Part shown: positions 28,529 to 43,752 of the stretch, in pieces
Layout: each line of letters begins with the position of its first letter
Numbering within the stretch: position 1 is the stretch's first letter
NCBI RefSeq assembly: GCF_030814995.1
Contig: NZ_JAUSVX010000004.1
Location: 372,001-436,000, forward strand
Length of the DNA: 64,000 nt
DNA from: Labrys wisconsinensis
GTDB taxonomy: Bacteria; Pseudomonadota; Alphaproteobacteria; Rhizobiales; Labraceae
Direction of reading: 5' to 3'
Translations under genes and position numbers: made by a program
Notes under the pieces: generated by a model
Told to the model about the DNA's origin: nothing
What the model saw: only the letters and a program-made list of their open reading frames with translations
Database searches by the model: none

Positions 28529-28545
28529 ACCAAGGAGCCAGTCCC

Positions 28546-29529: not shown

Positions 29530-29549
29530 TATCAGGCAAGGACAGGACC

Positions 29550-30443
29550 ATGGCGACTGAAACCGTCGGCTGGATCGGCGCCGGCAAGATGGGCGGCCCG
29601 ATGAGCAAGCGGCTCATCGGCGCCGGCTGCCGCGTCATCGTGCTCGAACCGGACGCGGAGAACCGGCGAGGTGCGGTCCAGGCGGGCGCCGAGGCGGCGG
29701 CCGACATGGCGGCGCTGGCCCGCGAGGCGGTGGTGATCTTCTCGATGATTCCCAACGACCGGATCCTGACGGGTCTGGTTTGCGGCGAGCCCGGGCTGGC
29801 GAGCCTCATGGCGCCCGGCGCTGTCCTGGTCGAGATGAGCACGGTCTCTCCGGCCGCCTCCAAGGCCGCGGCGGAGGCCTTGGCGCGGCGGAACATCGGC
29901 TATCTCCGCGCGCCCGTGTCGGGCAGCACGGCGCTGGCGGCCGCCGGCACGCTCTCGGTCATGGCCTCTGGGCCTCGCGCGGTCTACGACCGGGTCGAGC
30001 CGCTGCTCGCCGCCTTCTCGGCCAAACGCTTCTATCTCGGCGAGGCCGAGCAAGCCCGCTACCTCAAGCTCGTGGTCAATTCGCTGGTCGGCGCCACGTC
30101 GTCGCTGCTGGCCGAGGCCCTGGCCCTTGGCCGCAAGGGCGATCTGTCGCTCGACGACATGCTCGACGTGATCGGCCAGAGCGCCGTCGCCTCGCCCCTC
30201 ATCGGCTACAAGCGCGACATGGTGGTGAGCGGCAATTACGCGCCGGCCTTCACCGTCGAGCAGATGATCAAGGATTTCGATCTGATCATGGACACGGCGC
30301 GTACCGATCACGTACCGATGACGATGGCGGCTCTGGTGCGCCAGCTCTATGAGCAGGCCTATGTCGACGGCGACGGCCAGCGCGACTTCTTCGTCCTGTG
30401 CGAGACGGACGCCGCCCGCCGCAGCCCGCAACCGGCCGAATGA
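29550..30443 (+). CDS. Beta-hydroxyacid dehydrogenase (3-hydroxyisobutyrate dehydrogenase-like)
   Basis: 297 residues. Cofactor motif VGWIGAGKMGGPM, substrate motif APVSGST, and the catalytic lysine in ARYLKLVVNSLVG. The family oxidises beta-hydroxy acids such as 3-hydroxyisobutyrate, tartronate semialdehyde or glycerate derivatives with NAD(P). A second gene at 42841-43752 encodes a clear paralogue. Oxidation of a sugar-derived hydroxyacid fits the operon. Confidence 0.85.
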   Translation: MATETVGWIGAGKMGGPMSKRLIGAGCRVIVLEPDAENRRGAVQAGAEAAADMAALAREAVVIFSMIPNDRILTGLVCGEPGLASLMAPGAVLVEMSTVSPAASKAAAEALARRNIGYLRAPVSGSTALAAAGTLSVMASGPRAVYDRVEPLLAAFSAKRFYLGEAEQARYLKLVVNSLVGATSSLLAEALALGRKGDLSLDDMLDVIGQSAVASPLIGYKRDMVVSGNYAPAFTVEQMIKDFDLIMDTARTDHVPMTMAALVRQLYEQAYVDGDGQRDFFVLCETDAARRSPQPAE

Positions 30444-30453
30444 GGATGAGGAC

Positions 30454-31527
30454 ATGACCCGCAAGAACGCACTCGTGGTCGGCGTCACGGGCATCTCCGG
30501 CGCCAATGCGGCGGATCTCCTGGTCGCGGAGGGTTGGACCGTCCACGGGCTGGCGCGGCGCCCGCCGGAGGATCTGCCCGGCGTCAACCCCGTTGCAGCC
30601 GACCTGCGCGATGCCGCCGGCACCCGCGCGGCGCTCGCCGGCCTCGACATCAGCCATGTCTTCTTCTGCACCTGGGCCCGGCAGGAGAGCGAGGATGCCA
30701 ATTGCCGCGTCAACGGCGCCATGCTGCAGACCCTGCTCGACGGGGTGACGGCCCATTCCAGGCTCGACCACGTCGCGCTGGTGACCGGCCTGAAGCACTA
30801 TCTCGGGCCGTTCGAATCCTACGGCAAGGTCAAGCCCGACACGCCGTTCCGCGAGGACCAGCCACGGCTGCCCTACCAGAACTTCTACTACGTGCAGGAG
30901 GACATCCTCTTCGCCGAAGCCGCCCGGCACGGCTTCGGCTGGTCGGTGCACCGCCCCCACACCATGATCGGCTGGGCGATCGGCAACGCCATGAACATGG
31001 GCGTCACGCTCGCGGTCTATGCGGCGATCTGCAGGGAGATCGGCCGCCCCTTCCTGTTCCCCGGCACGCCGCAGCAATACGAGGCGGTGACCGACGTCAC
31101 CGACGCCCGCATCCTGGCGAAGCAGCTCGTCTGGGCCGCGACGACGCCGGCGGCCCGCGACCAGGCCTTCAACATCACCAATGGCGACGTGTTTCGCTGG
31201 CGGCGGCTCTGGGCCGCCCTGGCGGCCGATCTCGGCGTCGAGGTCGCGCCCTATCCCGGCCACCCCACGCCGCTGGAGCAGCAGATGGCCGGCCAGGAGG
31301 GCACCTGGGACCGCATCGTCGCCAAGCACGGGCTCGCGCCCCATCCGCTCGGGACGCTGGCCTCCTGGTGGCACACCGACGCCGATCTCGGCCGCGAGCT
31401 CGAAACCTTCACCGACATGACCAGGAGCCGCGCGCTCGGCTTCATGGATCTTCAGATCACCGAGCGCTCCTTCACCGACCTGTTCCAGCGCCTGCGCGCC
31501 GAGCGGATCATTCCGCCGCGCGGCTGA
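30454..31527 (+). CDS. PRISE-type SDR (progesterone 5-beta-reductase/iridoid synthase-like)
   Basis: 357 residues. The N-terminal NAD(P) motif is the variant VVGVTGISGANAADLL. The diagnostic atypical-SDR motifs are present: TGLKHYLGPFESYG with catalytic Lys114, and NFYYVQEDIL with the catalytic tyrosine at residue 145 or 146. Plant members reduce enone double bonds; bacterial members act on unknown, possibly sugar-derived, enones. Last gene of the operon, convergent with the HutC-type regulator (13-bp gap). Confidence 0.82.
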   Translation: MTRKNALVVGVTGISGANAADLLVAEGWTVHGLARRPPEDLPGVNPVAADLRDAAGTRAALAGLDISHVFFCTWARQESEDANCRVNGAMLQTLLDGVTAHSRLDHVALVTGLKHYLGPFESYGKVKPDTPFREDQPRLPYQNFYYVQEDILFAEAARHGFGWSVHRPHTMIGWAIGNAMNMGVTLAVYAAICREIGRPFLFPGTPQQYEAVTDVTDARILAKQLVWAATTPAARDQAFNITNGDVFRWRRLWAALAADLGVEVAPYPGHPTPLEQQMAGQEGTWDRIVAKHGLAPHPLGTLASWWHTDADLGRELETFTDMTRSRALGFMDLQITERSFTDLFQRLRAERIIPPRG

Positions 31528-31540
31528 CCGGTCGCCGCGT

Positions 31541-32332
31541 TCAGGGCGGTCCGTGCACCGGCGCGGACGGCGTGAAGCGCACGACGAAGCGGTGGCGGTC
31601 GCCGGGATAGATCAGCCGCACGAAGGTGATGAGGTCACCGTTGAGCCAGGTGCGCCGGGCGATGGAAATGCAGGCGGTGCGCTCCACCACCTGCAGCTTC
31701 TTGGCCATCATGGCATCGGCGGAGATCGCCCGGATCGAGTGCTCGCCTTCGCTGAAGGACACGTTCTTCAGCAGCCAGCTTCCCGGCGGCTCGTCCTTGA
31801 ACTGGAGGCGCTCGGCCTGCGGCACCACGTCGAGGTTGATCTGGCGGGTCTCCATGGTGAAGGGCAGGCTGTCGGCATAGTGCATCACCTCCATGAACAA
31901 GAGCCGGGTGCCGATGGGCACGCGGACATGCCGGGCGTCGGTCGCCTCCGTCACCTTGCGGATGCTGCGATTGCTGATCTCGAAGCTGTAGGTCCGGTCG
32001 ATCGCCAGGATCTCGGCGCGGATGTCCTGGATGTGCATCAGGGGCTCTTCCAGGCGCGGCGGCGCCACGTAGGAGCCCAGCTTGCGCTTGCGCGTGATCA
32101 TGCCGGCCGCCGCCAGGCTCGACAGGGCCTTGTTGACCGTCATCCGCGAGCATTTGTAGATCTCGACCAGCTCGAGCTCCGAGGGGATGCGCGTTCCCGG
32201 CCCCCATTCGCCGGTCGCGATCTTGGTCTCGATGCCGCGCTGGATTTCCGCGTAGAGAGGCATGGATTGCCTGGCCGGCTGGGTATCGTCCTCGGACAGG
32301 GGCGCCCTCGCTGAAACTTCGTTCTCGCTCAC
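31541..32332 (-). CDS. GntR/HutC-family transcriptional regulator
   Basis: 263 residues from a GTG. Residues about 25-95 form the GntR winged helix (PLYAEIQRGIETKIATGEWG and CSRMTVNKALSSLAAAGMI); residues 100-260 form the UTRA ligand domain (FEISNRSIRKVTEATDARH, IGTRLLFMEVMHYADSLPF). Classical HutC binds urocanate and releases hut operons. It lies 144 bp downstream of hutH on the same strand. The GTATATAC-centred sites at 34068, 35308, 35584 and 36816 resemble published HutC boxes (TTGTATATACAA-like) and are the likely targets. Confidence 0.82.
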   Translation of the reverse strand: MSENEVSARAPLSEDDTQPARQSMPLYAEIQRGIETKIATGEWGPGTRIPSELELVEIYKCSRMTVNKALSSLAAAGMITRKRKLGSYVAPPRLEEPLMHIQDIRAEILAIDRTYSFEISNRSIRKVTEATDARHVRVPIGTRLLFMEVMHYADSLPFTMETRQINLDVVPQAERLQFKDEPPGSWLLKNVSFSEGEHSIRAISADAMMAKKLQVVERTACISIARRTWLNGDLITFVRLIYPGDRHRFVVRFTPSAPVHGPP

Positions 32333-32476
32333 GGACCGGACCCCTCGTCAGGCACAATCATACCAGTCAGGCCCTCATTCCCGAACAGGTGCCGATGAAG
32401 TGATCCATCGGCGGTCCGATCATGTCCGGCCCGGCGGCGCAGTGAGGAGCGCTCCGCCCGGGCGGGACGCCGACCG

Positions 32477-34012
32477 TCAGCTGTCCAGGACGGGAAGAAT
32501 GCCGGCGCTCACGGCCCGCGCCAGGTGCCCGGTTGAAACCAGGTCGGCAGCCAGGCGCAGGTCCTCGGCCATGTAGCGATCGTCCGCCAGCTCCGGCACG
32601 ACGCTGCGCACGATTTTGCGGACTGCGTTCAGCTCCGGGCTCGAGGCGAGCGGTCGCCTGAGGTCGATGCCCTGGGCCGCGGTCAAGGTTTCGATGCCGA
32701 TGATCGAGAACAGGTTCTCGGTCATCGCCAGCAGCCGCCGCGCGCCGTGGCATGCCATGGACACGTGGTCCTCCTGGTTGGCGGAGGTGGGCGTCGAATC
32801 GACCGAAGCCGGATGCGACATCTGCTTGTTCTCGGACATCAGGGCCGCGGAAGTGACCTCGGCGATCATGAACCCGGAATTCAGGCCGGGCCTCGGCGTG
32901 AGGAAGGCGGGCAGGCCGTAGCTCAGGACCGGATCGACCAGCAGCGCGATGCGCCGCTGCGCGATGGAGCCGATCTCGCAGACCGCGATCGCGATCTGGT
33001 CCGCGGCAAAGGCGACGGGCTCGGCGTGGAAGTTTCCGCCGGACACGATCGTGCCATCGGAGAGCACCAGCGGGTTGTCGGTGGCCGCGTTGGCTTCCAT
33101 CTTGAGGGTCTGGGCCGTCTGGCGCAGGAGGTCGAGGCAGGCGCCGACCACCTGCGGCTGGCAGCGCAGGCAATAGGGGTCCTGCACCCGCTCGTCGCCC
33201 AGTTGGTGGCTGGCGCGGATCTCGGATCCCTGCATCAGCAGGCTCAGGGCGGACGCGGCGTCGATCTGGCCGCGATGTCCGCGCAGGCCGTGGATCTCGG
33301 GATGGAAGGGCGAGGTCGAGCCCATCGCGGCGTCGGTCGAGAGCGCACCCGAGATCAACGACGACACCAGCGCCCGGTGCGCCCTGAAAAGGCCCGCCAG
33401 GGCCAAGGCGGTGGAGGTCTGGGTGCCGTTGATCATGGCCAGCCCCTCCTTGGCCTTCAGGGCGATCGGCGACAGGCCTGCCTTCGCCAGGCCCTGGCGC
33501 GCCGGGACGAGATCGCCGTCGACCCTGACCATGCCTTCCCCGATCAGGGCCGCGGTCATGTGCGCCAGCGGCGCCAGGTCGCCGGATGCGCCCACGGATC
33601 CCTTTTCCGGGATGATCGGCAGGACGCCGCTTTCGAGCATGGCGGCGAGCGCCTGCACGACCTCGGGCCGCACGCCGGATGCTCCGCGCCCGAGCGAGAT
33701 CAGCTTCAGCGTCATGATCAGGCGCACGACCGCGTCCGGCAGCGGCGCGCCGACGCCGCAGCAATGGGAGAGGATGAGGTTGCGCTGCAGCCTGTCCACA
33801 TCTTCCGTGGGGATCCGCACGCTGGCGAGCTTGCCGAAGCCGGTGTTGATGCCGTAGTGGGCCTCGCTGCCCCCGAGAATGTCCGATATCCGCTCGGACG
33901 ATGCCCGCACGCGCGGCAAGCAGGCGGGATCGAGACGCGGGACGATCCCGGTTTCATAGACCGCCTGGAGCGTGTCGAGCGAGACATCACCGGGAACGAG
34001 CACGTTGGCCAT
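32477..34012 (-). CDS. hutH: Histidine ammonia-lyase
   Basis: 511 residues, the usual length. The self-forming MIO cofactor triad Ala-Ser-Gly is at 142-144 ([15 protein letters not shown]). Also seen: YGINTGFG at 53-60, H83 in LSHCCG (the histidine typical of histidine-specific lyases), [12 protein letters not shown] and SGGNFHAEP. It converts L-histidine to trans-urocanate and ammonia. The other hut genes (hutU, hutI, hutG) are not next to it, so it may serve a different route here, for example the histidine part of an opine. Start at 34012, upstream of which lies a HutC-like operator. Confidence 0.88.
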
Positions 34013-34067
34013 GGGTCGAGCCTCTACGGGAGCGCCGCAGCGGGAAGGCCGACGGCCGCGCGTTGAT

Positions 34068-34079
34068 TTGTATATACAA
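34068..34079. promoter_or_regulatory. HutC-like operator TTGTATATACAA before hutH
   Basis: A perfect 12-bp palindrome 56 bp upstream of the hutH start. The same GTATATAC core recurs before both cucumopine-synthase-like genes and before the ABC importer. It resembles HutC boxes described in Pseudomonas and Brucella. Confidence 0.65.
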
Positions 34080-34155
34080 TAGCAAATTGCGGGGACGTGT
34101 AAAGCGCCGCCGGCGGCCGTGGGGCAGGGCGGCCCGGGATCGCGGGCCGCCTGGA

Positions 34156-34251
34156 GCGTTTTGCGATTTGCCGGAATCGGCAAGAATCGCAAAGACGCGT
34201 CGAAACAATGAGTGAGAGCAAAACGCGTTTACGCACAAACGCGCTTTGCTC
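34156..34251. repeat. Palindromic intergenic repeat, copy A
   Basis: A mosaic of two hairpins. The first runs from GCGTTTTGCGA to TCGCAAAGACGC; the second has arms GAGCAAAACGCGTTT (34216-34230) and AAACGCGCTTTGCTC (34237-34251). The same mosaic recurs in the same orientation at 36623-36729. It lies downstream of the cucumopine-synthase-like gene at 34294 and may stabilise or end its transcript. Repeats of this style are common in Hyphomicrobiales genomes. Confidence 0.7.
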
Positions 34252-34293
34252 TGGCGCCGGGTGCTGATCGCTGATCTCCGATCGGGCCTCCGC

Positions 34294-35256
34294 TCAGGCC
34301 GGATTCGTCAGGTTGAAGCGGCCGGGGAGCTCCTGGCCCCTGACGCTGCGGCCGAAGAACACGCCGATATGCCAGGGGAAATAGTGATAGGACCAGGCGC
34401 ACAGGCGATTGCCGTACATGACGAAGGTCCGGAGCAGGGCGCGCAGTTCCTCCTTGTCCTCGGTGTCCCGGATCGCGGCGCGCAGCTTCAGCGAGAAGTC
34501 GCGCAGCGTCGTCAGGCCGGAGAAGCCGAGATATTCCGAATAGGGCTCGTCCTCGGTGTCGACGACCGCGATCAGGTCTTTGTGCGAGAGCATGTCGACA
34601 TATTTCACCCAGTTGAACGCGGTGTACATGATGTGGTCGCGCAGCATGCCGTTGGCGAAGTCCCAGGCCGTGAAGTACTGGCCGTAATTGCCGGTCTCGC
34701 CGATCTCGCCGAGCCGGATGCGGCGCAGGTCCTCCGGCTCCACCGTCTGGATGCGCTTGGCTTCGGCGTAGAATTCCGCGGCCACGCCCTCGAGGCCGGC
34801 AAAGCGGCTCTTGCCGGTGAAAGCCTGCGCCGGATCGTGCGGGCTCACCTCGACGAAGATGTGCTCCTTGGCGAAGAACAGGTTGTTCCAGATCGCCTTG
34901 CCGACGACGGGCAGGAGATGCAGGTAGTCCGGCAGAACCTTGCCGAGAACCGGCTGGGCCAGGGTCTCGGTGCTCCGGCCGTAGTTGATGGAGAACTTGT
35001 TGCCGGTCTTCTGCGAATAGCGCAGGTCGCCTGGCCGGCAATCCGAAAGACGGATCGTCTGGCGCACCGGCGCCGTGCTGATCGTCGGGGCCCAGGCATA
35101 GAGGGACTCGCCGGAGACCACCGGATGGGCCTGCATCACCTTGAACGGCAGATCCTGCCAGAACTCCTCGCAGAGTTCCGGGTTCAGCTCATCGGCGAGC
35201 TCGGCGACCACCGCCATGCCGAGCTCCGGCCATTTGATGTCAACAAGTCGGCCCAT
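34294..35256 (-). CDS. Cucumopine synthase-like protein, canonical domain order
   Basis: 320 residues from the ATG at 35256 (AGGAAAGGAA upstream). Residues 1-138 look like the cyclophilin-like (DUF3830) domain, with HPVVSGESLYAWAP at 44-57 and RYSQKTGNKFSINYG at 79-93. Residues 155-302 look like the helical bundle named after cucumopine synthase, with GQYFTAWDFANGMLRD at 192-207 and AWSYHYFPW at 287-295. In Agrobacterium, cucumopine and mikimopine synthases condense histidine with 2-oxoglutarate. No signal peptide. The neighbouring histidine lyase and HutC-type regulator support an imidazole substrate. Recognition is from memory of the family; the direction of the reaction here is unknown. 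Confidence 0.7.
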   Translation of the reverse strand: MGRLVDIKWPELGMAVVAELADELNPELCEEFWQDLPFKVMQAHPVVSGESLYAWAPTISTAPVRQTIRLSDCRPGDLRYSQKTGNKFSINYGRSTETLAQPVLGKVLPDYLHLLPVVGKAIWNNLFFAKEHIFVEVSPHDPAQAFTGKSRFAGLEGVAAEFYAEAKRIQTVEPEDLRRIRLGEIGETGNYGQYFTAWDFANGMLRDHIMYTAFNWVKYVDMLSHKDLIAVVDTEDEPYSEYLGFSGLTTLRDFSLKLRAAIRDTEDKEELRALLRTFVMYGNRLCAWSYHYFPWHIGVFFGRSVRGQELPGRFNLTNPA

Positions 35257-35307
35257 CCGTCGGTTCCTTTCCTGCGTGCGGGGTTGGCATGCAATAACCC
35301 CATAAAG

Positions 35308-35319
35308 GTCTATACATAA
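35308..35319. promoter_or_regulatory. HutC-like operator, variant copy
   Basis: The reverse complement reads TTATGTATAGAC, which differs from the importer site (TTATGTATATAC) at one position. Located upstream of the minus-strand cucumopine-synthase-like gene. Confidence 0.5.
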
Positions 35320-35583
35320 AACAAAGCCCGATCGACGCAAGCCGATTTGTCCGACGGTCGAATCGGCCGGCGCCAAGGGCCGTCGGGCTGGACAGTCTCT
35401 CCGTCCGGATGATGTGAGATGTGACGCTCGTGGAAATATATCCTTCAATATCAAGGTTTTGTCTATCTAGTCGGGCACTTTTGACATCCTCGGCTGCGCG
35501 ATCGACCGACTTGCTCCCTGCCTCCATGGGAGCTTCGAAGGGGTGCGTTGGGCGCCAAAAATGTCTGCGTTACCTCTGATTAA

Positions 35584-35593
35584 GTATATACAA
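35584..35593. promoter_or_regulatory. HutC-like operator before the permuted synthase-like gene
   Basis: GTATATACAA, with the wider reverse-complement context TTTTGTATATACTTA, matches the core at 34068 and 36816. Confidence 0.58.
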
Positions 35594-35664
35594 AACGATC
35601 ATTATGATTATGCTGCCGTCACGGGTGAGGCCCGTCGCATCGCCAACCAGGGACGAGTGGGACC

Positions 35665-36621
35665 ATGTCGGATAGAAGCCTGAGCGAAGTGGTCAGGGCG
35701 ATAAGGGAGGAGACCGACAAGATCCGGGCTGCCGAGCCCGAGGAGGTCTACAAGATCCGGACCGGAGCCATGGACAATCAGGCCGGCACGAATGGCCAGT
35801 ATTTCACGACGTGGGATTTCGCCAATGGCATGATCCGCGACATGTCGATGTACACTTGGTATCACTTCGTCGAGCTGGCGGAGGATGAGAGCTTCTCGCT
35901 CGACCAGCTCTGCGCCGTCGTCAACCTGTTCGACCATCCCTACAGCAACTACCTGCGCTACAGCGGCTTTCCGAAGCTGGGCGGCTTCGCCCTCGCGCTG
36001 CGGCGGCATCTGCCGTCGGCGGCGAGCCGGCAGGACGCGGTCGAGGCCGTGCGCGCCATGTGCGCCTATACCAATCTGCTCAGCGCCTGGTCCTTCCACT
36101 ATTTTCCCTGGAATCTGGGCGCGGGGCAGTTCGGCTATGCGGCGCCGGGCGAACCGCTCCCGTCCCTGTCCGACCTCTCCCGCCGCGTGGCAATTCGCGA
36201 CGGCCGCAGGGTCAGGCTCACCTGGAAGCCTCTCGGCATCACCGTCGAGGCGATCCTGGCGGTGAGGGAGAATCCGGATCTCTGCGAGGACATCGTCGCG
36301 GCACTGCCTTTCACCATCCTGCAGGACCATGCCGTGGTCAGCGGCGAGGCCATCTATGCCTGGGCGCCGGTGGTCAGCACGGCGCCCGTGCAGGTGAAGG
36401 AGCGTCAATGCGACGCTCCGGTCGGGCGAATCCGCTTTTCCCAGGGGACGGGAAACAAGCTCATCATCCAGTATGGCGCGGCGACCGAGGACATCGCGAC
36501 GCCGGTGCTCGGCGAGGTCGTGCCGGAACACAAGGATCGGCTCGTCGAGGTTGGGCGGCATGTCATGAAGAGCACGTTCGAGACCAAGGAGCCGATCTGG
36601 CTCGAGGTCGCGCTGGCCTGA
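35665..36621 (+). CDS. Cucumopine synthase-like protein with circularly permuted domain order
   Basis: 318 residues. The same two domains as the divergent neighbour are present, but swapped. The helical bundle comes first (residues 5-157: GQYFTTWDFANGMIRD at 44-59, AWSFHYFPW at 141-149). The cyclophilin-like domain comes last (residues 181-318: DHAVVSGEAIYAWAP at 221-235, RFSQGTGNKLIIQYG at 257-271). Total length is nearly the same as the neighbour's, so nothing was lost. Probably acts on the same or a related imidazole or opine substrate, perhaps as a partner subunit. A GTATATAC operator lies 72 bp upstream. Confidence 0.7.
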   Translation: MSDRSLSEVVRAIREETDKIRAAEPEEVYKIRTGAMDNQAGTNGQYFTTWDFANGMIRDMSMYTWYHFVELAEDESFSLDQLCAVVNLFDHPYSNYLRYSGFPKLGGFALALRRHLPSAASRQDAVEAVRAMCAYTNLLSAWSFHYFPWNLGAGQFGYAAPGEPLPSLSDLSRRVAIRDGRRVRLTWKPLGITVEAILAVRENPDLCEDIVAALPFTILQDHAVVSGEAIYAWAPVVSTAPVQVKERQCDAPVGRIRFSQGTGNKLIIQYGAATEDIATPVLGEVVPEHKDRLVEVGRHVMKSTFETKEPIWLEVALA

Positions 36622-36622
36622 G

Positions 36623-36729
36623 GCGTCTTGCGATTTGGCGGACTCGCCGAGAGTCGCCAAGAGTCGCAAAGACGCGTCGAAGCAAGGATCTGGAGCAAGG
36701 CAGCGTTTCCGCCCGAACGCGCTTTGCTC
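36623..36729. repeat. Palindromic intergenic repeat, copy B
   Basis: Begins 1 bp after the stop of the permuted synthase-like gene. It shares GCGTCTTGCGATTTG, TCGCAAAGACGCGTCGAA and AACGCGCTTTGCTC with copy A, in the same order and orientation. The two copies bracket the synthase-like gene pair. It can fold into hairpins and may act as a transcript end. Confidence 0.7.
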
Positions 36730-36813
36730 CGCGGCGGCGGACCTGCGGGGGCGTGCGGGAATGGCGCCGGTGCCGGCGGAATCCGTCTTGTCACGCCGGC
36801 TCCGGTTGGTATT

Positions 36814-36825
36814 ATGTATATACTA
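36814..36825. promoter_or_regulatory. HutC-like operator before the importer operon
   Basis: ATGTATATACTA around the GTATATAC core (36816-36823). It matches the sites before hutH and both synthase-like genes, and so links the transporter to the same regulator. Confidence 0.58.
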
Positions 36826-36834
36826 AACTGCCGC

Positions 36835-36866
36835 ATATAAGGCAGAAAAGCTTAGATATAAGGCAG
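36835..36866. repeat. Direct repeat ATATAAGGCAG, spaced 21 bp
   Basis: ATATAAGGCAG at 36835-36845 and again at 36856-36866. The 21-bp period equals two DNA turns, as expected for sites bound by adjacent protein protomers on one face of the helix. Located between the GTATATAC site and the small open frame. Confidence 0.45.
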
Positions 36867-36884
36867 CAGAGGAGAACGGACGCC

Positions 36885-37037
36885 ATGGCGTTCAGGATGG
36901 ATGCCGGCTGCGTCGGCGCCGAGCCGGCGACTGGCCTTTTCCCGCCTCCGGCCGACGGGCCGGGGGCTCGTGCCGCGGAGCCTGTCGGCCACGCTTCATC
37001 CGGCGGCGTGCGTCCGGCCTCGGCCCGCCTCGACTAG
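36885..37037 (+). CDS. Possible small leader open reading frame (50 residues)
   Basis: ATG preceded by GAGGAG at a proper distance, reading MAFRMDAGCVGAEPATG and ending in TAG. The composition (Ala, Pro, Gly, Arg) is what random GC-rich sequence gives, and I recognise no family. It may be a leader peptide, a small protein, or chance. It lies 302 bp before the importer binding-protein gene. Confidence 0.25.
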   Translation: MAFRMDAGCVGAEPATGLFPPPADGPGARAAEPVGHASSGGVRPASARLD

Positions 37038-37339
37038 TGCGGCACCCGGCCTTTCGCGAGGCCAGCCCGGCAGGACGGCGCCGGGCGGCGATGCCGCGAG
37101 CCTGGCCCGGACGGGCTGCGGTGTTCGGGCCGGGAAGCGACGTGGCGCCGGTCTGACGTGCCGATGTGGATCGCGCTGGCCGCAGGAGCCGGCGCCGTCT
37201 TGACGCGACCGGATACCGACCGGGGCTGCCGGCGCCCGGTTCATGGACTTCACGGACATTGCGCTGGCCGTATGGTCTCGGCCGCGACGAACCGCTCCGC
37301 GCCGATGACGGGCCGGCGGACAACAGCCTCGAGGGGAAG

Positions 37340-38374
37340 ATGGCGATGACATGGATCGGACGTCGAACGCTGCTCAAGAGCATGGCCGTGATCGCGGCCA
37401 TGGCCCTGGGCGCATCCACGCAGGCCCGGGCGCAGGAGAGGGAGCTCATCCTCAGCGGCTTCGGCGGCGCCTATGACGAGGCAATGGCGCAGAGCGTCAA
37501 GGATTTCGAGAAGGCCAACGACGTCAAGGTCACGATCGTGGCCGGATCCGGGGCCAACAACATGGCGCGCGTCCGCAACAAGGAGATCGACGTCATCGTC
37601 TCCGATCCAGTCTTCGCGCTGCGCATGGAGGCGGAGGGCGCCTTCGCGCCGCTGGACCCGAAGCTGGTGCCCAATCTCGCCTCGCTCTACCCCAAGGCCA
37701 TCTATTCGCCGGCGGTCGTCGCGGCCAATTTCGGCGCCTATGTCCTTGCCTACAATCCGGGCGAGGTGAAGCCGCCGCAGTCCTGGTACGATCTGGCCGA
37801 TCCTCAGTACAAGGGGCGCGTCGCGTTGCGCGGCTTCCGGCCGGAGAACATCGAGCTGATCACCCTGTTCGCCAAGCTCGCGGGCGGCGACGAGCGTCAT
37901 CCCGATGCCGGCTTCGCCGAGCTGGCCAAGATCGCCGGCAACATCGACGTCTGGATCAATGCCCACGCCGATCACCTCGAGCTCTATCGCAACGACCAGA
38001 TCTCCATGAGCGTGTGGACCGACGGCCGCATCGCCTGGGCGCACGACGCCGAAGGCGTCAATGTCAAGGGCGCCATTCCGAAGGAGGGCTTCTTTCCGCT
38101 GGCCTCGACGCTGAGCGTGGTCGCCGGCCGCCCGAACACGGACCTGGCGGAGAAGCTCGCGAACCACCTGCTCGGCGCGCAGGCCGGCCTGATCATGGCG
38201 CAGAAGCTGGGCTATTTCCCCACCAACAAGCAGGCGGTCCTGCCGCCGGACGTGCAGGCCAAGATGATGCTCACGCCGCAGAACGTCGACAGCTTGCAGA
38301 GCGCCGACTGGAAATACATCGTGACCGTGTATGACGCGTGGCAGTCTCGGTGGGAGCGGGAAATCCAGAGATAA
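37340..38374 (+). CDS. ABC transporter periplasmic binding protein (PotD/AfuA-like)
   Basis: 344 residues. A twin-arginine-like signal peptide (IGRRTLLKSMAVIAAMALGA) is followed by a family 8-type solute-binding domain (ILSGFGGAYDEAMAQSVKDF, NNMARVRNKEIDVIVSDP, FGAYVLAYNP, ISMSVWTDGRIAWAH). This type binds polyamines, ferric ion or opines; the Ti-plasmid mannopine/agropine uptake systems belong to it. With the synthase-like and histidine-lyase genes nearby, an opine or imidazole ligand is plausible, but that is inference. Confidence 0.82.
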   Translation: MAMTWIGRRTLLKSMAVIAAMALGASTQARAQERELILSGFGGAYDEAMAQSVKDFEKANDVKVTIVAGSGANNMARVRNKEIDVIVSDPVFALRMEAEGAFAPLDPKLVPNLASLYPKAIYSPAVVAANFGAYVLAYNPGEVKPPQSWYDLADPQYKGRVALRGFRPENIELITLFAKLAGGDERHPDAGFAELAKIAGNIDVWINAHADHLELYRNDQISMSVWTDGRIAWAHDAEGVNVKGAIPKEGFFPLASTLSVVAGRPNTDLAEKLANHLLGAQAGLIMAQKLGYFPTNKQAVLPPDVQAKMMLTPQNVDSLQSADWKYIVTVYDAWQSRWEREIQR

Positions 38375-39456
38375 TGGCCGATGGCATCGATATCGAGCTG
38401 TCGCATTGCGGCAAGAGCTACGGACAGTTCAGCGCCCTGAAGGACGTCTCCCTGCAGGTCCGGAGCGGCGAGTTCATCACCGTTCTCGGCCCCAGCGGCT
38501 GCGGCAAGACCACGACGCTCCGCGTCATCGGCGGATTCACCATCCCCGACGAAGGCCGCGTCTCGATCCGGGGCCGGGATGTCACGACCCTGCCGCCGCA
38601 TCGGCGCAACATCGGCGTGGTCTTCCAGAACTACGCCTTGTGGCCGCATATGACGGTCTTCGAGATCATCGCCTTCGGCCTGCGCATCCGCCGGATGGCA
38701 CGCGAGGAGATCGCCCGGCGTGTCGACCGGGCGCTCGGAATGGTCCAGCTTTCCGGCCTGAAGGATCGCTATCCCCGCGAGTTGAGCGGCGGCCAGCAGC
38801 AGCGCGTCGCGACGGCGCGGGCCCTGGCCATCGATCCCGAGGTCATCATTCTCGATGAGCCGCTGTCCAATCTCGACAGGCGCCTGCGCGAGGACATGCG
38901 CATCGAGCTGAAGCGGCTGCAGCGCTCCCTCGGGGTGACGATGCTGTTCGTCACCCACGACCAGGAGGAGGCGCTGTCGATGTCGGACAGGGTCGTGGTC
39001 ATGCAGGCGGGCAGCATCCAGCAGGTCGCCGATCCGCGCACGGTCTACGAGCGCCCGGCCAACAGCTTCGTCGCCGGCTTCCTCGGCAGCGCCAATTTCC
39101 TCGACGGCGAGATCGTCGAGAATGCCGGGGACCAGAAGGCCCTCGTCCGCCTGCCGGGAGGGGCGGTCGTCGGCGCCCATTCGCCGGTCCAGGCGCGCGC
39201 CGGCGAGACGATCCGCCTGATCGTCAGGCCGGAATGGCTGGTGCTGGCGCGTCCGGCGGCCGGTGCGGATGCGGGCGAGCTCGGCGGGACCGTCCGCGAG
39301 ATCATCTACGAAGGGTCTGCCGTCCGCTACGGACTGAGCCTCGATCACGGGCCGGAAGCGCTCGTGTTCCTGCAGGAGCGGTCCAATGCCGACGTGCTCA
39401 ACCCGGGAGACAGGGTCAGGATCCATGTCGCGAGCGCCGTCATTGCCCAGGACTGA
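38374..39456 (+). CDS. PotA-type ABC transporter ATPase
   Basis: 360 residues, starting inside the previous stop (TAATG). Walker A GPSGCGKTT, Q-loop VFQNYALWPHMTV, signature LSGGQQQRVATARAL, Walker B VIILDEPLSNLD and the H-loop VTHDQEEAL. A TOBE domain follows from about residue 275. Energises the spermidine/putrescine-like importer. Confidence 0.9.
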   Translation: MADGIDIELSHCGKSYGQFSALKDVSLQVRSGEFITVLGPSGCGKTTTLRVIGGFTIPDEGRVSIRGRDVTTLPPHRRNIGVVFQNYALWPHMTVFEIIAFGLRIRRMAREEIARRVDRALGMVQLSGLKDRYPRELSGGQQQRVATARALAIDPEVIILDEPLSNLDRRLREDMRIELKRLQRSLGVTMLFVTHDQEEALSMSDRVVVMQAGSIQQVADPRTVYERPANSFVAGFLGSANFLDGEIVENAGDQKALVRLPGGAVVGAHSPVQARAGETIRLIVRPEWLVLARPAAGADAGELGGTVREIIYEGSAVRYGLSLDHGPEALVFLQERSNADVLNPGDRVRIHVASAVIAQD

Positions 39457-40330
39457 CGGCCCCGGCGACGGCGCCCTGGCGAGGGCCGGCGGACTGATCG
39501 CCCGCGGCTCGCTCTTCCTGCCGTTCGCCTTCGTCGCCCTGTTCTTCTTCGTGCCCATGGGCTGGCTGATCGCCACCAGCCTGTCGTCGCACGAGCTCGG
39601 CAGCGCTCCCCGGTTCACCGGCACGCTGGAGCACTATGCCCGGTTCTGGACCGATCCGTTCTATCTGGAGACGGCGCTGTGGACCACGATCAAGCTGTCC
39701 GTCCTGTCGACGGTCTTCGCCCTGATCATCGGCTATGTCCTGGCCTATTACATCGCCGGGCTGCCGTCCAATCGCCGCGGCCTGCTCACCAGCCTGGTGG
39801 TCGTCTCGCTGTCGGTCAACATCGTCATCCGCATCTTCGGCCTCAACGTGCTCCTGATGAACGGCGGCCTGGTCACCGGCGCGCTCGGCCTGATCGGGCT
39901 CGGGCCGATGCGGATCATGTATACCGAGCTCGGCGTGCTGATCGGGCTCGTCCAGATCGCCGTGCCCTATGTCGTGCTGCCGCTGATCGGCGTGCTCGCC
40001 GCCATCGATCCGGCGCTGAAGGAGGCCGCCGCGAGTGTCGGGGCGGGCCGGCAGCGGACCTTCTGGGCCGTGACCTTTCCGCTGTCGCTGCCCGGCGTCG
40101 TCGCCGGCACGCTGATCGCGTTCACCCTCAATGCGGCGGCCTTCGCCATCCCCTCGCTGATGGGGGGCGGACGGGTGAGGATGATGGGCATGATGGCCTA
40201 CGAGCAGGCCACGATCCAGGGCAACTTCCCCTTCGCCGCCGCGATCGGCATCAGCCTGACGGTGCTCAGCATCGTCGTGACGGCCATCTATCTCGTCGCC
40301 GTTCGTCGCATCTTCCGGACATCGAGGTAA
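39425..40330 (+). CDS. PotB-type ABC transporter permease
   Basis: 301 residues from the ATG at 39425 (AGGATCC upstream), overlapping the ATPase gene by 32 bp. Six hydrophobic segments, beginning SLFLPFAFVALFFFVPMGWL, and the EAA loop LKEAAASVGAGRQRTFWAVTFP. Inner-membrane channel half. Confidence 0.88.
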   Translation: MSRAPSLPRTDGPGDGALARAGGLIARGSLFLPFAFVALFFFVPMGWLIATSLSSHELGSAPRFTGTLEHYARFWTDPFYLETALWTTIKLSVLSTVFALIIGYVLAYYIAGLPSNRRGLLTSLVVVSLSVNIVIRIFGLNVLLMNGGLVTGALGLIGLGPMRIMYTELGVLIGLVQIAVPYVVLPLIGVLAAIDPALKEAAASVGAGRQRTFWAVTFPLSLPGVVAGTLIAFTLNAAAFAIPSLMGGGRVRMMGMMAYEQATIQGNFPFAAAIGISLTVLSIVVTAIYLVAVRRIFRTSR

Positions 40331-40336
40331 CGCCGA

Positions 40337-41164
40337 ATGACAGCCCTCGCCCGAAACACCGGCCGGCCTGCGCGACTGCGCCTTCCGATGGGCCTCGGCA
40401 TCGCGGCGTTCTGCGGCTTCGTGTTCGTCGCCGCGCCGCTGGTCGTGGTCGCCGGTGCCGCCCTCAATGCCGACGCCATGGTGTTTCCGCCGCGATCCCT
40501 GACCCTGCATTGGATGATCGCGGCGCTGACCGATCGAAGCTTCGTCGATGCCGCGCTGGTCAGCCTGGCCGTCGCCGTCGTGGCCGCGGCCGTCTCGACC
40601 ATCTTCGCCCTGCCGGTCGCCCTGCGGCTGCGCAAGGCATCGCCCTTCGTCGCCAGCGTGCTGACGCTGTCCTTCATGGGGCCGCTGCTGGTGCCCTCGG
40701 TGATCTTCGCGCTCGCGCTCTATTCGGTGATCATGTCCGCGTTCGGGGTCACGAGCCTGGCGGCGCTGATGATCGGCCACGTCATCATCACCATGCCCTA
40801 TCCCGTCCGGACCATCACCGCCGTCATGGACAACCTCGACCCGGCGCTGGAGGATGCGGCGGGCAGCGTCGGCGCGACGCCCTGGCGGACGTTCCTGTCG
40901 ATCACCCTGCCGCTGATCAAGCCGGGCGTGATCGCCGGCTTCCTGTTCGCCTTCATCACGTCCTGGAACGATTTCTCCATCTCGATCTTCCTGACGCCGC
41001 GCCAGCTCCAGCCGCTGCCGATCAGGATCTACGAGTACCTGCTCTATCAATACCGGCCGCTGATCGCCGCCGTCTCCACCTGGTCGGTGATCGGCTCGGC
41101 GATCATCGTCATCGTCATCGACAGGCTGGTCGGGCTGAACGTCTTCTCCGGCCGCAGGGGCTGA
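40337..41164 (+). CDS. PotC-type ABC transporter permease
   Basis: 275 residues with six hydrophobic segments and the EAA loop (ALEDAAGSVGATPWRTFLSITLP), followed by the PotC-family FAFITSWNDFSISIFLT. Partners the PotB-type subunit 6 bp upstream. Last gene of the importer operon, convergent with the small YciI-like gene. Confidence 0.9.
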   Translation: MTALARNTGRPARLRLPMGLGIAAFCGFVFVAAPLVVVAGAALNADAMVFPPRSLTLHWMIAALTDRSFVDAALVSLAVAVVAAAVSTIFALPVALRLRKASPFVASVLTLSFMGPLLVPSVIFALALYSVIMSAFGVTSLAALMIGHVIITMPYPVRTITAVMDNLDPALEDAAGSVGATPWRTFLSITLPLIKPGVIAGFLFAFITSWNDFSISIFLTPRQLQPLPIRIYEYLLYQYRPLIAAVSTWSVIGSAIIVIVIDRLVGLNVFSGRRG

Positions 41165-41496: not shown

Positions 41497-42567
41497 TCAG
41501 CTGGAGCGGACCAGGATCTTCATGTTGCGGCCGGAGGGATCGAGCAGCTCGTCGAAGCCCCTGGCCACGACATGCTCGGGATCGATGGTCGATGTCACGA
41601 TCGCCTCGACGGGATAGAGCCCCGCCGCGATCATCCCGGCGATCCGCGGCCACACCGTGGTCGGATAGCACCAGGTCGCTTCGATCGTAATGTCCTTCAG
41701 CGCCCACAACATGGCGTCGATCGCCGCCGGCCGGGTGTGTAGCCCGACCTGCACCACGCGGCCGCGCCGGCGCACCGCCTTGGCGCAGCTGTTCAGCGAG
41801 GCTTCGAGGCCGACGCATTCGATCGCCACGTCGACGCCGACGCCGTCCTCGCTGTGCTCCCGGACGAAGGCGGCGACGTCGACCGCCTTCGGGTCGACGA
41901 CGAGGGCATCGGGCACCAGCCGCCCGGCGAGGGCACGGCGGTTCGGGTTCGGCTCGGCCACGATGATGGTGCTCGCGCCGGCGGCCCGGCAGGCGAGCAA
42001 GGTCAGGGCGCCGATCGGACCGAGGCCCGAGAGCAGCACGGTCGACCCGGCCTGCACCCCGCCGCGATCGACGGCGTAGAGGGCCACGGCGGCCGGCTCG
42101 ATCATCGCCGCCTGCACGTCGCTCACCGCATCCGGCACCTTGAAGACGTTGTAGTCGTTGACGACGGCGCGCTCGGCCATGCCGCCCCAGGCCCAGGACA
42201 GGCCGACGCAGCCGAGGTTCTCGCTGAGATGGAAGAGCCCGCGCCGGCCGTAATAGTCGTCGCGCGGCGACACCAGCGGCTGGATCGAGACGCGGTCGCC
42301 GGGCCTGACGTTGGTCACCGCCTTGCCGGTGTCGAGCACCTCGGCCGAGAACTCGTGGCCGAGGATCTGCGGCAGCCGGGCGCCGGTGTAGCGATGCGGC
42401 TCGGCCGGCGTGACGATCGGCCCTGCCACATATTCATGCAGGTCGGTGCCGCAGATGCCGCACACGATCGGCCGGATCAGGACATCGCCGTCCTTCAAGG
42501 GGCCCTGGGGGCCCGGCACGTCTTCGACGCGAATGTCGCGCCTGTCATGGAAGCGCACGGCGCGCAT
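41497..42567 (-). CDS. Zinc-dependent 2,3-butanediol dehydrogenase-like alcohol dehydrogenase
   Basis: 356 residues. Catalytic zinc motifs CGICGTDLHEY and LGHEFSAEV, Rossmann motif SGLGPIGALTLLACRAAG. The long second domain with LVSPRDDYYGRRGLFHLSEN and CVGLSWAWGGMAE is characteristic of the butanediol dehydrogenase branch. Oxidises vicinal diols or related alcohols with NAD. Divergent from the beta-hydroxyacid dehydrogenase gene. Confidence 0.82.
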   Translation of the reverse strand: MRAVRFHDRRDIRVEDVPGPQGPLKDGDVLIRPIVCGICGTDLHEYVAGPIVTPAEPHRYTGARLPQILGHEFSAEVLDTGKAVTNVRPGDRVSIQPLVSPRDDYYGRRGLFHLSENLGCVGLSWAWGGMAERAVVNDYNVFKVPDAVSDVQAAMIEPAAVALYAVDRGGVQAGSTVLLSGLGPIGALTLLACRAAGASTIIVAEPNPNRRALAGRLVPDALVVDPKAVDVAAFVREHSEDGVGVDVAIECVGLEASLNSCAKAVRRRGRVVQVGLHTRPAAIDAMLWALKDITIEATWCYPTTVWPRIAGMIAAGLYPVEAIVTSTIDPEHVVARGFDELLDPSGRNMKILVRSS

Positions 42568-42840
42568 GGTTCCTCCCCACCTGTGGGAGCTGGGGCCTCG
42601 GCGGCGCTCCCTTCGTCCTAGAGCACGTCTGCAGATAAGCGCGCTGCGCTCTCCGCCGTCATGGCCGGACTTGATCCCCGGACGACGCCTCGAGCTCGAA
42701 GCCTAGCGACCGGTCGCCGCGAGCCCAGCACGAAGATGTTCAAGATGAATATCTTCCCGGGCGACGACCTGGTGAAGAGGCGCCAAGCTGTCCTGCAGAA
42801 GACGCAACCTGGGATGCCGGCCGGGCCGGGAGCGGCGGAC
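42568..42840. other. 273-bp divergent intergenic region with repeat-like elements
   Basis: No gene. Contains a fragment (around 42656-42683, GTCATGGCCGGACTTGATCC) of a type often dispersed in Hyphomicrobiales intergenic DNA, and a 23-bp inverted repeat at 42733-42755. Promoters for both flanking dehydrogenase genes must lie here; none is clear. Confidence 0.4.
42733..42755. promoter_or_regulatory. Inverted repeat AAGATGTTCA-N3-TGAATATCTT
   Basis: Arms match at 9 of 10 positions. It lies 86 bp before the beta-hydroxyacid dehydrogenase start. Could be an operator or a small hairpin. Confidence 0.35.
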
Positions 42841-43752
42841 ATGCGGATCGGGTGGATCGGAATCGGCAAGATGGGCAGCCCGATGGCCCGGGCGGTGCTG
42901 TCGGCCGGCTATGCCGTCACCGTGCTGGAGCCCCTGATCGAGAACCGTGCCAGCACCGTCGCAGCGGGCGCCGGGGTTGCCGATTCGATCGAGGAGCTGG
43001 CGGCACGCTCGGATGTGATCCTCACCACCGTGGCGCAGGACGACGTGCTGCATGATCTCGTGTTCGGCGACGGCGGGCTGGCGCAGCATCTGGCGTCCCG
43101 TCACGTCTTCGTCGACGTCAGCACGGTGTCGCCGCGTCTCTCCGCCGAGATCGGCGACGTGCTCGCGGCCCGGGCCGTCGACTATCTTCGCGCGCCGGTG
43201 TCCGGCAGCACCGCGACGGCGCAATCGGCGCAGCTGACCGCGATGGTGTCCGGCCCGAAGCGGGCCTGGGCCCTGGTGAAGCCGGTCCTCGCCTGCTTCG
43301 CGGCAAGGCAGTTCTGGGTCGGCGAGCGGGAGGAGGCGCGCTATCTCAAGCTCGCGATCAACGTGCTGGTGGGCGGCACCTCGGCGCTGCTGGCCGAGGC
43401 TTTGGCCGTCGGCCGCGCCGGCGGCCTGCCCGTGTCCGTGCTCATGGACGTCATCTGCCAGAGCGCCGTCGGCTCGCCCCTGCTCGCCTATAAGCACCAG
43501 GCCATCGTCGGCAACGATTTCGATCCGTCCTTCTCGATCAGTCAGATGATCAAGGATTTCGAGCTGATCTGCGAGGTCGTGCGGCAGACGGACGGCCCGG
43601 CCGAGCTGAGCGAGGCGGTGCGGCGCCGCTTCGAGGCCGCGCGCCGCCGCGGCCTGGGCGACCGGGACTATTTCGTGGTGACGCGCGACCACGAGCCGGC
43701 GGAGCCCGTCGACCCCGTCCCCGGCTCCTTCCCCGGCATCGAGTTCGGCTGA
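42841..43752 (+). CDS. Beta-hydroxyacid dehydrogenase (3-hydroxyisobutyrate dehydrogenase-like), paralogue 2
   Basis: 303 residues from the ATG at 42841. Motifs: IGWIGIGKMGSPM, VDVSTVSPR, APVSGSTATAQ, and the catalytic Lys in ARYLKLAINVLVG. It aligns along its whole length with the product of 29550-30443 and shares the distinctive VSGST and QMIKDFEL/QMIKDFDL segments, so the two are paralogues. NAD(P)-dependent oxidation of a beta-hydroxyacid. Convergent with the winged-helix/binding-protein fusion gene. Confidence 0.83.
   Translation: MRIGWIGIGKMGSPMARAVLSAGYAVTVLEPLIENRASTVAAGAGVADSIEELAARSDVILTTVAQDDVLHDLVFGDGGLAQHLASRHVFVDVSTVSPRLSAEIGDVLAARAVDYLRAPVSGSTATAQSAQLTAMVSGPKRAWALVKPVLACFAARQFWVGEREEARYLKLAINVLVGGTSALLAEALAVGRAGGLPVSVLMDVICQSAVGSPLLAYKHQAIVGNDFDPSFSISQMIKDFELICEVVRQTDGPAELSEAVRRRFEAARRRGLGDRDYFVVTRDHEPAEPVDPVPGSFPGIEFG

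What the first reader, a model, noticed from the sequence alone, without database searches (positions are those of the whole stretch)
31541..41164. Possible histidine-opine locus: HutC, histidine ammonia-lyase, two cucumopine-synthase-like proteins and an opine-type importer
Seen: genes for a HutC-type regulator, a MIO-containing lyase with histidine-type motifs, two proteins with cyclophilin-like and cucumopine-type helical domains, and a Pot/Mot-type ABC importer, joined by four shared operators. Known: cucumopine and mikimopine are made from histidine and 2-oxoglutarate, and Ti-plasmid opine importers include Pot-type systems. Inference: the locus makes, takes up or breaks down a histidine-derived imidazole compound. 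The other hut genes are absent, so this is not an ordinary hut operon.
Basis: partly seen in the sequence, partly recalled or inferred. Interest (0 to 1): 0.85.

Follow-up and report, generated by a model that had tools for sequence, protein, structure and literature searches.

The report
Histidine-opine uptake and breakdown locus
A bacterium carries, apparently on its chromosome, the same eight genes that crown-gall and hairy-root plasmids carry for using cucumopine, a histidine compound made by infected plants, and one of its two central enzymes is a close relative of the enzyme that makes cucumopine in those plants.

Summary
In detail: hutC, hutH, two Cucumopine_C proteins (A, B) and a four-gene importer lie at 31541-41164, with three strong operator-like sites and one weak. 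The same eight genes, in the same order and orientation, form part of the cucumopine-catabolic region of Ti, Ri and opine-catabolic plasmids, at about 60-82% protein identity. The five window proteins searched each rank the same 13 plasmid records first. Best explanation: uptake of a histidine opine (cucumopine or a close relative) and cleavage to histidine plus a keto acid by B, perhaps with A, running the Pictet-Spengler reaction backwards, drained by HutH. In six plasmids (two lineages) the catabolic B gene and the T-DNA gene taken as cucumopine synthase share a core of 99.3-100% DNA identity, against 85% between lineages. Window B is 59% identical to that T-DNA protein and matches KslB, which joins tryptophan and 2-oxoglutarate. 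The window shows no T-DNA border and the genome no RepC. Later hut genes lie elsewhere in the genome, which has no other HutH over the curated cut-off. Direction, substrate and A's role are inferred. New variant of a known kind.

The parts
31541..32332 (-). hutC-type repressor (GntR/UTRA)
   Evidence: TIGR02018 260.5 bits over cut-off 220; 75-78% identical to 13 cucumopine-type plasmid records, the next record listed 46%
32477..34012 (-). hutH, histidine ammonia-lyase
   Evidence: TIGR01225 696 bits; histidine ammonia-lyase entries 1gkm and relatives best in PDB; the only HutH over the cut-off in this genome
34294..35256 (-). protein A: cyclophilin-like domain then Cucumopine_C helical domain (cyc-hel)
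   Evidence: AlphaFold mean pLDDT 85.1, best fold match McbB 3x27
35665..36621 (+). protein B: helical domain then cyclophilin-like domain (hel-cyc), the order of KslB and of the pRi2659 T-DNA gene taken as cus
   Evidence: AlphaFold mean pLDDT 86.6, best fold match KslB; 59% identical to the pRi2659 T-DNA protein
37340..38374 (+). importer solute-binding protein
   Evidence: SBP_bac_8; first 13 cucumopine-type records (76-81%), then 4 records that carry the mikimopine-type split pair (44-46%), then 32% (25 of 176 records listed)
38374..39456 (+). importer ATPase (PotA type)
   Evidence: TIGR01187 360.6 bits over cut-off 355.6
39386..40330 (+). importer permease 1 (listed from the first ATG of the ORF; it overlaps the ATPase gene, so the true start may be later)
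   Evidence: BPD_transp_1; 80-82% identical to three plasmid copies
40337..41164 (+). importer permease 2
   Evidence: BPD_transp_1; 79-82% identical to three plasmid copies
34069..34078 (.). HutC-type operator TGTATATACA, about 57 bases upstream of hutH
   Evidence: exact match
35307..35316 (.). weak operator-like site about 51 bases upstream of A
   Evidence: two mismatches; Chelatococcus L035 has a one-mismatch site and Microvirga L039 a two-mismatch site about 55 bases upstream of A
35583..35592 (.). operator about 73 bases upstream of B
   Evidence: one mismatch
36815..36824 (.). operator between B and the importer genes
   Evidence: one mismatch

Best explanation
The locus takes up a histidine opine, most likely cucumopine (histidine + 2-oxoglutarate) or a near relative, and feeds it into histidine catabolism. 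The four-gene ABC importer brings it in. B, and probably A, cleave it in the cytoplasm by running the Pictet-Spengler condensation backwards, giving histidine and a keto acid. HutH at once deaminates the histidine to urocanate, which would pull the cleavage forward; urocanate is broken down by HutU, HutI, HutF and HutG encoded elsewhere in the genome. HutC represses the block from shared TGTATATACA operators until an inducer (urocanate in known HutC proteins, recalled) releases it. Shown by sequence: gene content, synteny with plasmid cucumopine-catabolic regions, family and predicted fold, conserved glutamate, operator-like sites, position of the remaining hut genes. Inferred: substrate, direction, division of labour between A and B, regulation and inducer.
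For: Same eight genes, order and orientation on pRi2659, pAtAg67 and an A. vitis CG957 plasmid, about 60-82% identical; pAtAg67's cucumopine-catabolic region is named so in print (PMC10745273, passages). HutC, HutH, A, B and the solute-binding protein each rank the same 13 plasmid records first, with sharp drops below for HutC (75% to 46%) and the solute-binding protein (76% to 44-46%, the latter being two mikimopine-type Ri records and two Sinorhizobium medicae plasmids with the same split pair). In six plasmids of two lineages holding both genes, catabolic B and the T-DNA gene share a core of 99.3-100% DNA identity, against 84.8-84.9% between the lineages. B's best solved match is KslB with a Trp + 2-oxoglutarate product. 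The glutamate at A97/B275 is in 59 of 59 sequences compared. The mikimopine plasmid has a parallel layout: split A/B-type genes beyond a T-DNA border sequence, a hydantoinase pair, two importers, hut genes. 22 of 37 loci found in genomes have hut or hydantoinase genes in the fetched stretch.
Against: I know of no enzyme of this family shown to run backwards, and the C-C bond made by a Pictet-Spengler reaction is usually stable (recalled). The solved members McbB and KslB are biosynthetic. Window B is only 59% identical to the T-DNA protein, so its substrate may differ. The block lacks the hydantoinase pair, amino-acid importer and hutFIGUD that adjoin it on plasmids; the hydantoinase A homologs of this genome reach at most 37% identity. 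A has no assigned role and is a broken remnant in one relative (Neorhizobium L045); one actinobacterial MAG locus (L042) has A without B. 15 of 37 loci have no hut or hydantoinase neighbour, including all 7 Streptomyces, Amycolatopsis and Actinosynnema loci. Operator sites with at most one mismatch are missing from Paraburkholderia L041 and L006, Caballeronia L061, Bradyrhizobium L060 and the mikimopine stretch L072.
Confidence: 0.65

Rival explanations
1. Same logic, different compound: the locus takes up and cleaves another imidazole-fused Pictet-Spengler product (mikimopine, a spinacine-like compound, or another histidine-carbonyl adduct) rather than cucumopine.
For: Window B lies outside the plasmid B / T-DNA clade, nearest to a Bradyrhizobium protein (76% over the domains) that stands in another context; the solved homolog KslB also has a structure with a product from another carbonyl partner, succinic semialdehyde (title of 9nsu).
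Against: All eight genes keep the order of the cucumopine plasmids, and in the plasmid collection the solute-binding protein and HutC are far closer to those than to any other record listed.
Confidence: 0.2
2. Biosynthetic: A and B make a histidine-2-oxoglutarate compound inside the bacterium, and the importer recovers it or a precursor.
For: McbB and KslB are biosynthetic (PMC7024544 and PMC12513458, passages); the T-DNA gene sharing B's core is read as a synthase.
Against: Shared operators with HutH, which destroys the amino acid substrate, and with an importer; homologous genes sit in catabolic regions, also on pAtAg67, which lacks a T-DNA according to PMC10745273 (passage).
Confidence: 0.1
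3. A and B are not the cleaving enzymes: they act on a downstream or side product (epimerisation, lactam interconversion), and an unlinked enzyme releases histidine.
For: Two different paralogs, the role of A unknown; plasmids add a hydantoinase/oxoprolinase pair that may open a lactam (suggested for other opines in PMC6733357, passage).
Against: B without A, in the fetched stretch, accompanies hutH and hydantoinase genes in Sodalis, Acerihabitans, Caballeronia and Paraburkholderia phenoliruptrix loci; no other shared candidate for the cleavage was seen. Against this counter-argument, L042 has A and a HutH match without B.
Confidence: 0.1
4. An ordinary but scattered hut operon that happens to sit beside unrelated genes.
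For: HutC and HutH pass equivalog cut-offs, and this HutH is the only one over the cut-off in the genome.
Against: Shared operator-like sites, the same block in plasmids and in Microvirga, and a HutC far closer to the block's plasmid copies than to others.
Confidence: 0.03

Closest known systems
Cucumopine-catabolic region of pRi2659, pAtAg67 and octopine/cucumopine Ti plasmids
   Same: Same eight genes in the same order and orientation, about 60-82% identical; operator-like sites at a similar place upstream of hutH
   Different: Plasmid regions continue into hutF, hutI, hutG, hutU, hutD and, on the other side, a hydantoinase/oxoprolinase pair, an amino-acid importer and MmgE/PrpD; the window block has none of these beside it and lies in a genome without a RepC match
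Cyclophilin-like Pictet-Spenglerases (KslB, McbB; Pfam Cucumopine_C)
   Same: Both domains, predicted fold (TM 0.83 for A on McbB, 0.86 for B on KslB, by query), invariant glutamate
   Different: KslB and McbB serve biosynthesis from tryptophan; here the genes sit with an importer and a histidine-degrading enzyme
T-DNA opine synthase genes of pRi2659 (taken as cus) and pRi1724 (taken as mis); both annotated 'hypothetical protein'
   Same: B has the domain order of the pRi2659 T-DNA gene and 59% identity; A has the domain order of the pRi1724 T-DNA gene but is not close to it
   Different: The window has no T-DNA border better than chance, and no tumour gene was among the ten flanking ORFs scanned
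Mannopine catabolism genes homologous to T-region synthesis genes (Kim and Farrand 1996; title seen in a reference list only)
   Same: Catabolic genes that are homologs of the opine's own synthesis genes
   Different: Different opine and different enzyme families (recalled)

Membership tests
Cucumopine-catabolic block of Ti/Ri/opine-catabolic plasmids | hutC-hutH-A divergent from B-SBP-ATPase-permease-permease | tested here: met
   three plasmid regions compared gene by gene
Cucumopine-catabolic block of Ti/Ri/opine-catabolic plasmids | HutC-type operator sites in the intergenic regions | tested here: met
   three sites with at most one mismatch and one weak site; binding itself not tested
Cucumopine-catabolic block of Ti/Ri/opine-catabolic plasmids | adjoining hydantoinase/oxoprolinase pair, amino-acid importer and hutFIGUD | tested here: not met
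   no match in the 64-kb window; hut genes at two other places; hydantoinase A homologs elsewhere at most 37%. Microvirga L039 shows none of these in its 20 kb either, so I treat them as accessory
Cucumopine-catabolic block of Ti/Ri/opine-catabolic plasmids | growth on or uptake of cucumopine | not testable with these tools
   needs an experiment
Cyclophilin-like Pictet-Spenglerases | Cucumopine_C plus cyclophilin-like domain, same fold | tested here: met
Cyclophilin-like Pictet-Spenglerases | invariant glutamate (catalytic in McbB as I recall) | tested here: met
   59 of 59 aligned sequences
Cyclophilin-like Pictet-Spenglerases | Pictet-Spengler activity | not testable with these tools
   needs purified protein
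T-DNA opine synthesis locus | T-DNA borders | tested here: not met
   one site with 2 mismatches in 64 kb; 31 of 100 shuffles have at least as many
Ordinary hut operon | hutU, hutI and hutG or hutF beside hutH | tested here: not met
   absent in the window, found on contig C1 at two places

The most novel reading that the evidence does not exclude
A and B are reversible opine lyases (retro-Pictet-Spenglerases) with opposite domain orders, in bacteria outside Agrobacterium; the T-DNA cucumopine synthase is this catabolic enzyme recruited into the T-DNA and kept nearly identical to it, by repeated recruitment or by gene conversion, in each of two plasmid lineages, so that plant and bacterium use one active site in opposite directions. 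Bacteria with chromosomal blocks would then be free-living consumers of histidine opines.
Probability: 0.45. Interest if true: 0.78.

Novelty: new variant of a known kind. Interest (0 to 1): 0.6.

Why it matters
It places the cucumopine-type block outside crown-gall and hairy-root plasmids, in a genome where its third-position GC is like that of its neighbours. If the mechanism is right, it adds a catabolic, reverse use of a fold known for alkaloid biosynthesis, and suggests where the T-DNA synthase came from: one enzyme, run one way in the plant and the other way in the bacterium. The claim is directly testable with purified A, B and HutH. It also bears on naturally transgenic plants that keep intact cus-like genes (Arachis species, PMC11351324, passages), since other soil bacteria could be consumers.

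Tried and rejected
Ordinary hut operon, T-DNA insertion and recent plasmid acquisition were considered and set aside. Searches find the other hut genes elsewhere. No T-DNA border exceeds chance. Third-position GC of the eight genes is 0.86-0.92, like four neighbouring genes (0.88-0.92), against 0.69-0.71 for four pRi2659 genes; total GC of A, B and the solute-binding protein gene (0.64-0.65) is a little below the neighbours (0.69-0.70). Two copies of an intergenic repeat lie inside the block; the first has at least 40 further matches in this genome, one of them short (40 of 66 candidates scored; the block's second copy is not in that list). No RepC match exists in the genome.

An empty site was sought in the congeners G002 and G004: only a homolog of the ADH gene (53%) was found, without the rest of the flank, so the insertion history is unresolved. 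A census of PF18631 found it in 1 of 398 genomes drawn from the phylum, namely this one. The genome-contig scan used two short peptide patterns, so relatives without them are missed. Literature: in the listings and passages I saw from searches there was no description of cucumopine cleavage by these enzymes or of the identity between T-DNA gene and catabolic gene; no paper was read whole. The key paper on pAtAg67 (Hooykaas et al. 2022) is not held, was not seen, and may already say some of this. Dropped rows: in the tree I left out L036 and L038 (taken as copies of plasmid A proteins), single-domain ORFs without a partner (L057, L059, one L038 fragment) and one Sinorhizobium medicae pair with a truncated domain; the CFBP2407 plasmid, which has only short hypothetical ORFs at the T-DNA place, was not used. 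Rows are not independent: several of the 13 plasmid records are the same or sister strains; K599 and O132 are identical over the core, the four Ti-type T-DNA genes are identical to each other, and so only two lineages are compared; for pRi2659 K599, B was taken from record NC_010841 and the T-DNA gene from NZ_CP019703. L037/L052 and L049/L071 share contigs. The counts use bit-score thresholds of mine, and its hutC in L048 (29%) and hutH in L042 (42%) may be other GntR or MIO proteins. The species was not identified.
Full report
What is there. Eight intact genes occupy 31541-41164. On the minus strand: hutC (31541-32332), hutH (32477-34012) and A (34294-35256). On the plus strand: B (35665-36621) and an ABC importer made of a solute-binding protein (37340-38374), an ATPase (38374-39456) and two permeases (39386-40330, 40337-41164). 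HutC and HutH pass NCBI's curated equivalog cut-offs. A and B pass the Pfam cut-off for Cucumopine_C; DUF3830 is only a sub-threshold match in A.

A and B have their domains in opposite order. BLASTP aligns the start of A with the end of B (48%) and the end of A with the start of B (39%). AlphaFold models are good (mean pLDDT 85.1 and 86.6). The best fold match of A, over its full length, is McbB (3x27; TM 0.83 by query), and of B it is KslB (9nst, 'product of L-Trp and a-ketoglutaric acid'; TM 0.86, 47% identity); each matches the other's template over one domain only. Other genomes and plasmids hold the two domains as separate neighbouring reading frames (pRi1724, Sodalis praecaptivus, Sinorhizobium medicae, a Martelella, and two gut Firmicutes). 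One glutamate (A97, B275) is in 59 of 59 sequences aligned; that it is McbB's catalytic residue is recalled.

Regulation. TGTATATACA with up to two mismatches occurs five times in 64 kb, against 0.80 expected, and four of the five are in the block's intergenic regions; the site upstream of A is weak. In the whole genome there are 22 positions with at most one mismatch, 3 of them here; the reversed control pattern has 34 in the genome, so the sites are clustered here rather than common. Sites 57-66 bases upstream of hutH recur in pRi2659, pAtAg67, the A. vitis plasmid, Microvirga and Neorhizobium, and the site 73 bases upstream of B recurs at the same distance in Neorhizobium. The stretches holding this genome's hutF-hutU-hutD and hutI-hutG have none with up to two mismatches, and five related stretches (L041, L006, L061, L060, L072) have none with up to one.

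The same block on opine plasmids. pRi2659, pAtAg67 and an A. vitis plasmid carry the same eight genes in the same order and orientation, with protein identities of 74.5-81.5% for seven of them and 59.7-60.6% for B. Searches of 72,556 plasmid records with HutC, HutH, A, B and the solute-binding protein each return the same 13 records first. After those, HutC drops to 46% in the records listed (20 of 645). The solute-binding protein drops to 44-46% in four records, two mikimopine-type Ri plasmids and two Sinorhizobium medicae plasmids that carry the same split pair, and then to 32% (25 of 176 listed). HutH falls only to 72% (40 of 454 listed). A and B matched 16 and 21 records in all. pRi2659 is called cucumopine-type and pRi1724 mikimopine-type in PMC8554961 (passages); pAtAg67's cucumopine-catabolic region is named in PMC10745273 (passages). 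On the plasmids the block continues into hutF, hutI, hutG, hutU, hutD and, on the other side, a hydantoinase/oxoprolinase pair, an amino-acid importer and MmgE/PrpD. None of the hut or hydantoinase genes among these has a match in the window, and they are not among the flanking ORFs scanned.

Outside plasmids. One scan of genome contigs, with two peptide patterns, gave 37 loci. The eight-gene block is complete in Microvirga puerhi (L039); Chelatococcus asaccharovorans (L035) has it without hutH; Neorhizobium (L045) has it with a broken A. Paraburkholderia, Caballeronia, Sodalis, Acerihabitans and Martelella loci combine B, with or without A, with various sets of hutH or hutC, hydantoinase genes and amino-acid importers; one actinobacterial MAG (L042) has A without B. 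In all, 22 of 37 loci have hut or hydantoinase matches within the fetched stretch, by thresholds of mine; some of these are Agrobacterium plasmid contigs. The 7 Streptomyces, Amycolatopsis and Actinosynnema loci have none; their own context was not examined, and biosynthesis there is a guess from KslB. A gut Yanshouia locus has a TRAP-type importer and an asparaginase-like gene beside its copies. In a sample of 398 genomes of the phylum only this genome has the family, and the four congeners lack it.

The T-DNA gene and the catabolic gene. In pRi2659 (NZ_CP019703) a gene annotated 'hypothetical protein' lies between two T-DNA border sequences with RolB-family genes. I take it to be cus; the label is inferred. 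It has B's domain order. Against the catabolic B of pRi2659 it is 92% identical in protein, the differences being at the two ends. Over codons 24-290 the DNA of the two genes is 100.0% identical in pRi2659 K599 and in pRiO132, and 99.3-100.0% in four Ti-type plasmids (CG957 99.9, Ag57 100.0, CG412 99.3, NCPPB3554 99.3). Between Ri and Ti types the same genes are only 84.8-84.9% identical, and within a plasmid the first 23 codons are 39-49% and the last part 62-69% identical. The six plasmids amount to two lineages. The pattern means either recruitment of B into the T-DNA more than once or gene conversion within each lineage; in both cases the central part of the presumed synthase and of the catabolic protein is practically one sequence. 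In pRi1724 the T-DNA gene taken as mis (cyc-hel) groups with the split pairs and is 45% identical to the pair on the same plasmid, which lies beyond the border sequence next to it. The precedent of catabolic genes homologous to T-region synthesis genes is the mannopine system (Kim and Farrand 1996; title seen in a reference list only).

This genome. It has one urocanase and one HutI over the cut-off, on contig C1 at two places, with hutF-hutU-hutD and hutI-hutG. hutI and hutG are adjacent there without a hutH between them, whereas all four congeners have hutI-hutH-hutG (three of them also; sequence of the own pair). The own HutI and HutG are only 62-66% identical to those of the congeners, so the two cassettes may not be the same locus. 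The only HutH over the curated cut-off is the one in this block; four lower-scoring MIO-family genes remain. So this HutH probably also serves ordinary histidine use, with the caution that the assembly is a draft of 55 contigs. Third-position GC of the block genes is 0.86-0.92, like neighbouring genes and unlike pRi2659 (0.69-0.71), and two copies of a repeat that is common in the genome lie within it: it is not a recent arrival from such a plasmid. No RepC match was found in the genome, so the locus is probably chromosomal; plasmids of other types are not excluded.

How it most likely works. Import, cleavage by B (and A) in the reverse Pictet-Spengler direction, immediate deamination of histidine by HutH, and derepression of HutC by a downstream product. 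What sequence shows is the parts, their conservation together, and the near-identity of B's plasmid counterpart with the T-DNA gene. The direction, the substrate and A's role are inference. A may take a second stereoisomer, form a mixed assembly with B, or be a better lyase; I cannot choose between these. That the T-DNA genes taken as cus and mis, whose products are diastereomers (recalled), have opposite domain orders, while this locus holds one protein of each order, is suggestive only, since A is not close to the mis group.

Novelty. The block on plasmids is a known kind; a version in a genome without a RepC match, lacking the adjoining genes and with host-like third-position GC, is a new variant. 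The retro-reaction and the shared core of the T-DNA and catabolic genes may or may not already be in print: the one paper most likely to discuss them could not be read.

Noticed in passing
window 34149-34251 and 36616-36729: A roughly 100-base intergenic repeat, two copies in the block; the first copy has at least 40 further matches in the genome (which scored 40 of 66 candidates and does not list the second copy).
   Followed up: partly
window 28018-30443 and 41497-43752: A zinc alcohol dehydrogenase and a 3-hydroxyisobutyrate-dehydrogenase-like gene stand on both sides of the block; the two latter proteins are 47% identical.
   Followed up: partly
window 30349-31527: A PRISE-like short-chain reductase directly left of hutC.
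   Followed up: no
L023 8186-10366 (own genome, contig C1): hutI and hutG are adjacent without hutH, while the four congeners have hutH between them.
   Followed up: partly
L092 19225-20188 (pTiAg57): The A gene of pTiAg57 is annotated as two short ORFs, and its hutH match falls in two pieces with no annotated gene; pAtAg67 has full-length annotated copies of both.
   Followed up: no
L065 4003-10984 (Yanshouia hominis) and L066: Gut Firmicutes carry both a split and a fused version of the family; in L065 a GntR regulator, an asparaginase-like gene and a TRAP-type importer lie beside them.
   Followed up: partly
L060 2834-3787 (Bradyrhizobium valentinum): The closest relative of window B found (76% over the domains) stands between a gene with a sub-threshold integrase-core match and a luciferase-like monooxygenase gene.
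   Followed up: partly
G000:C19:44207-44216: The only other exact TGTATATACA in the genome, on another contig; what it regulates was not examined.
   Followed up: no
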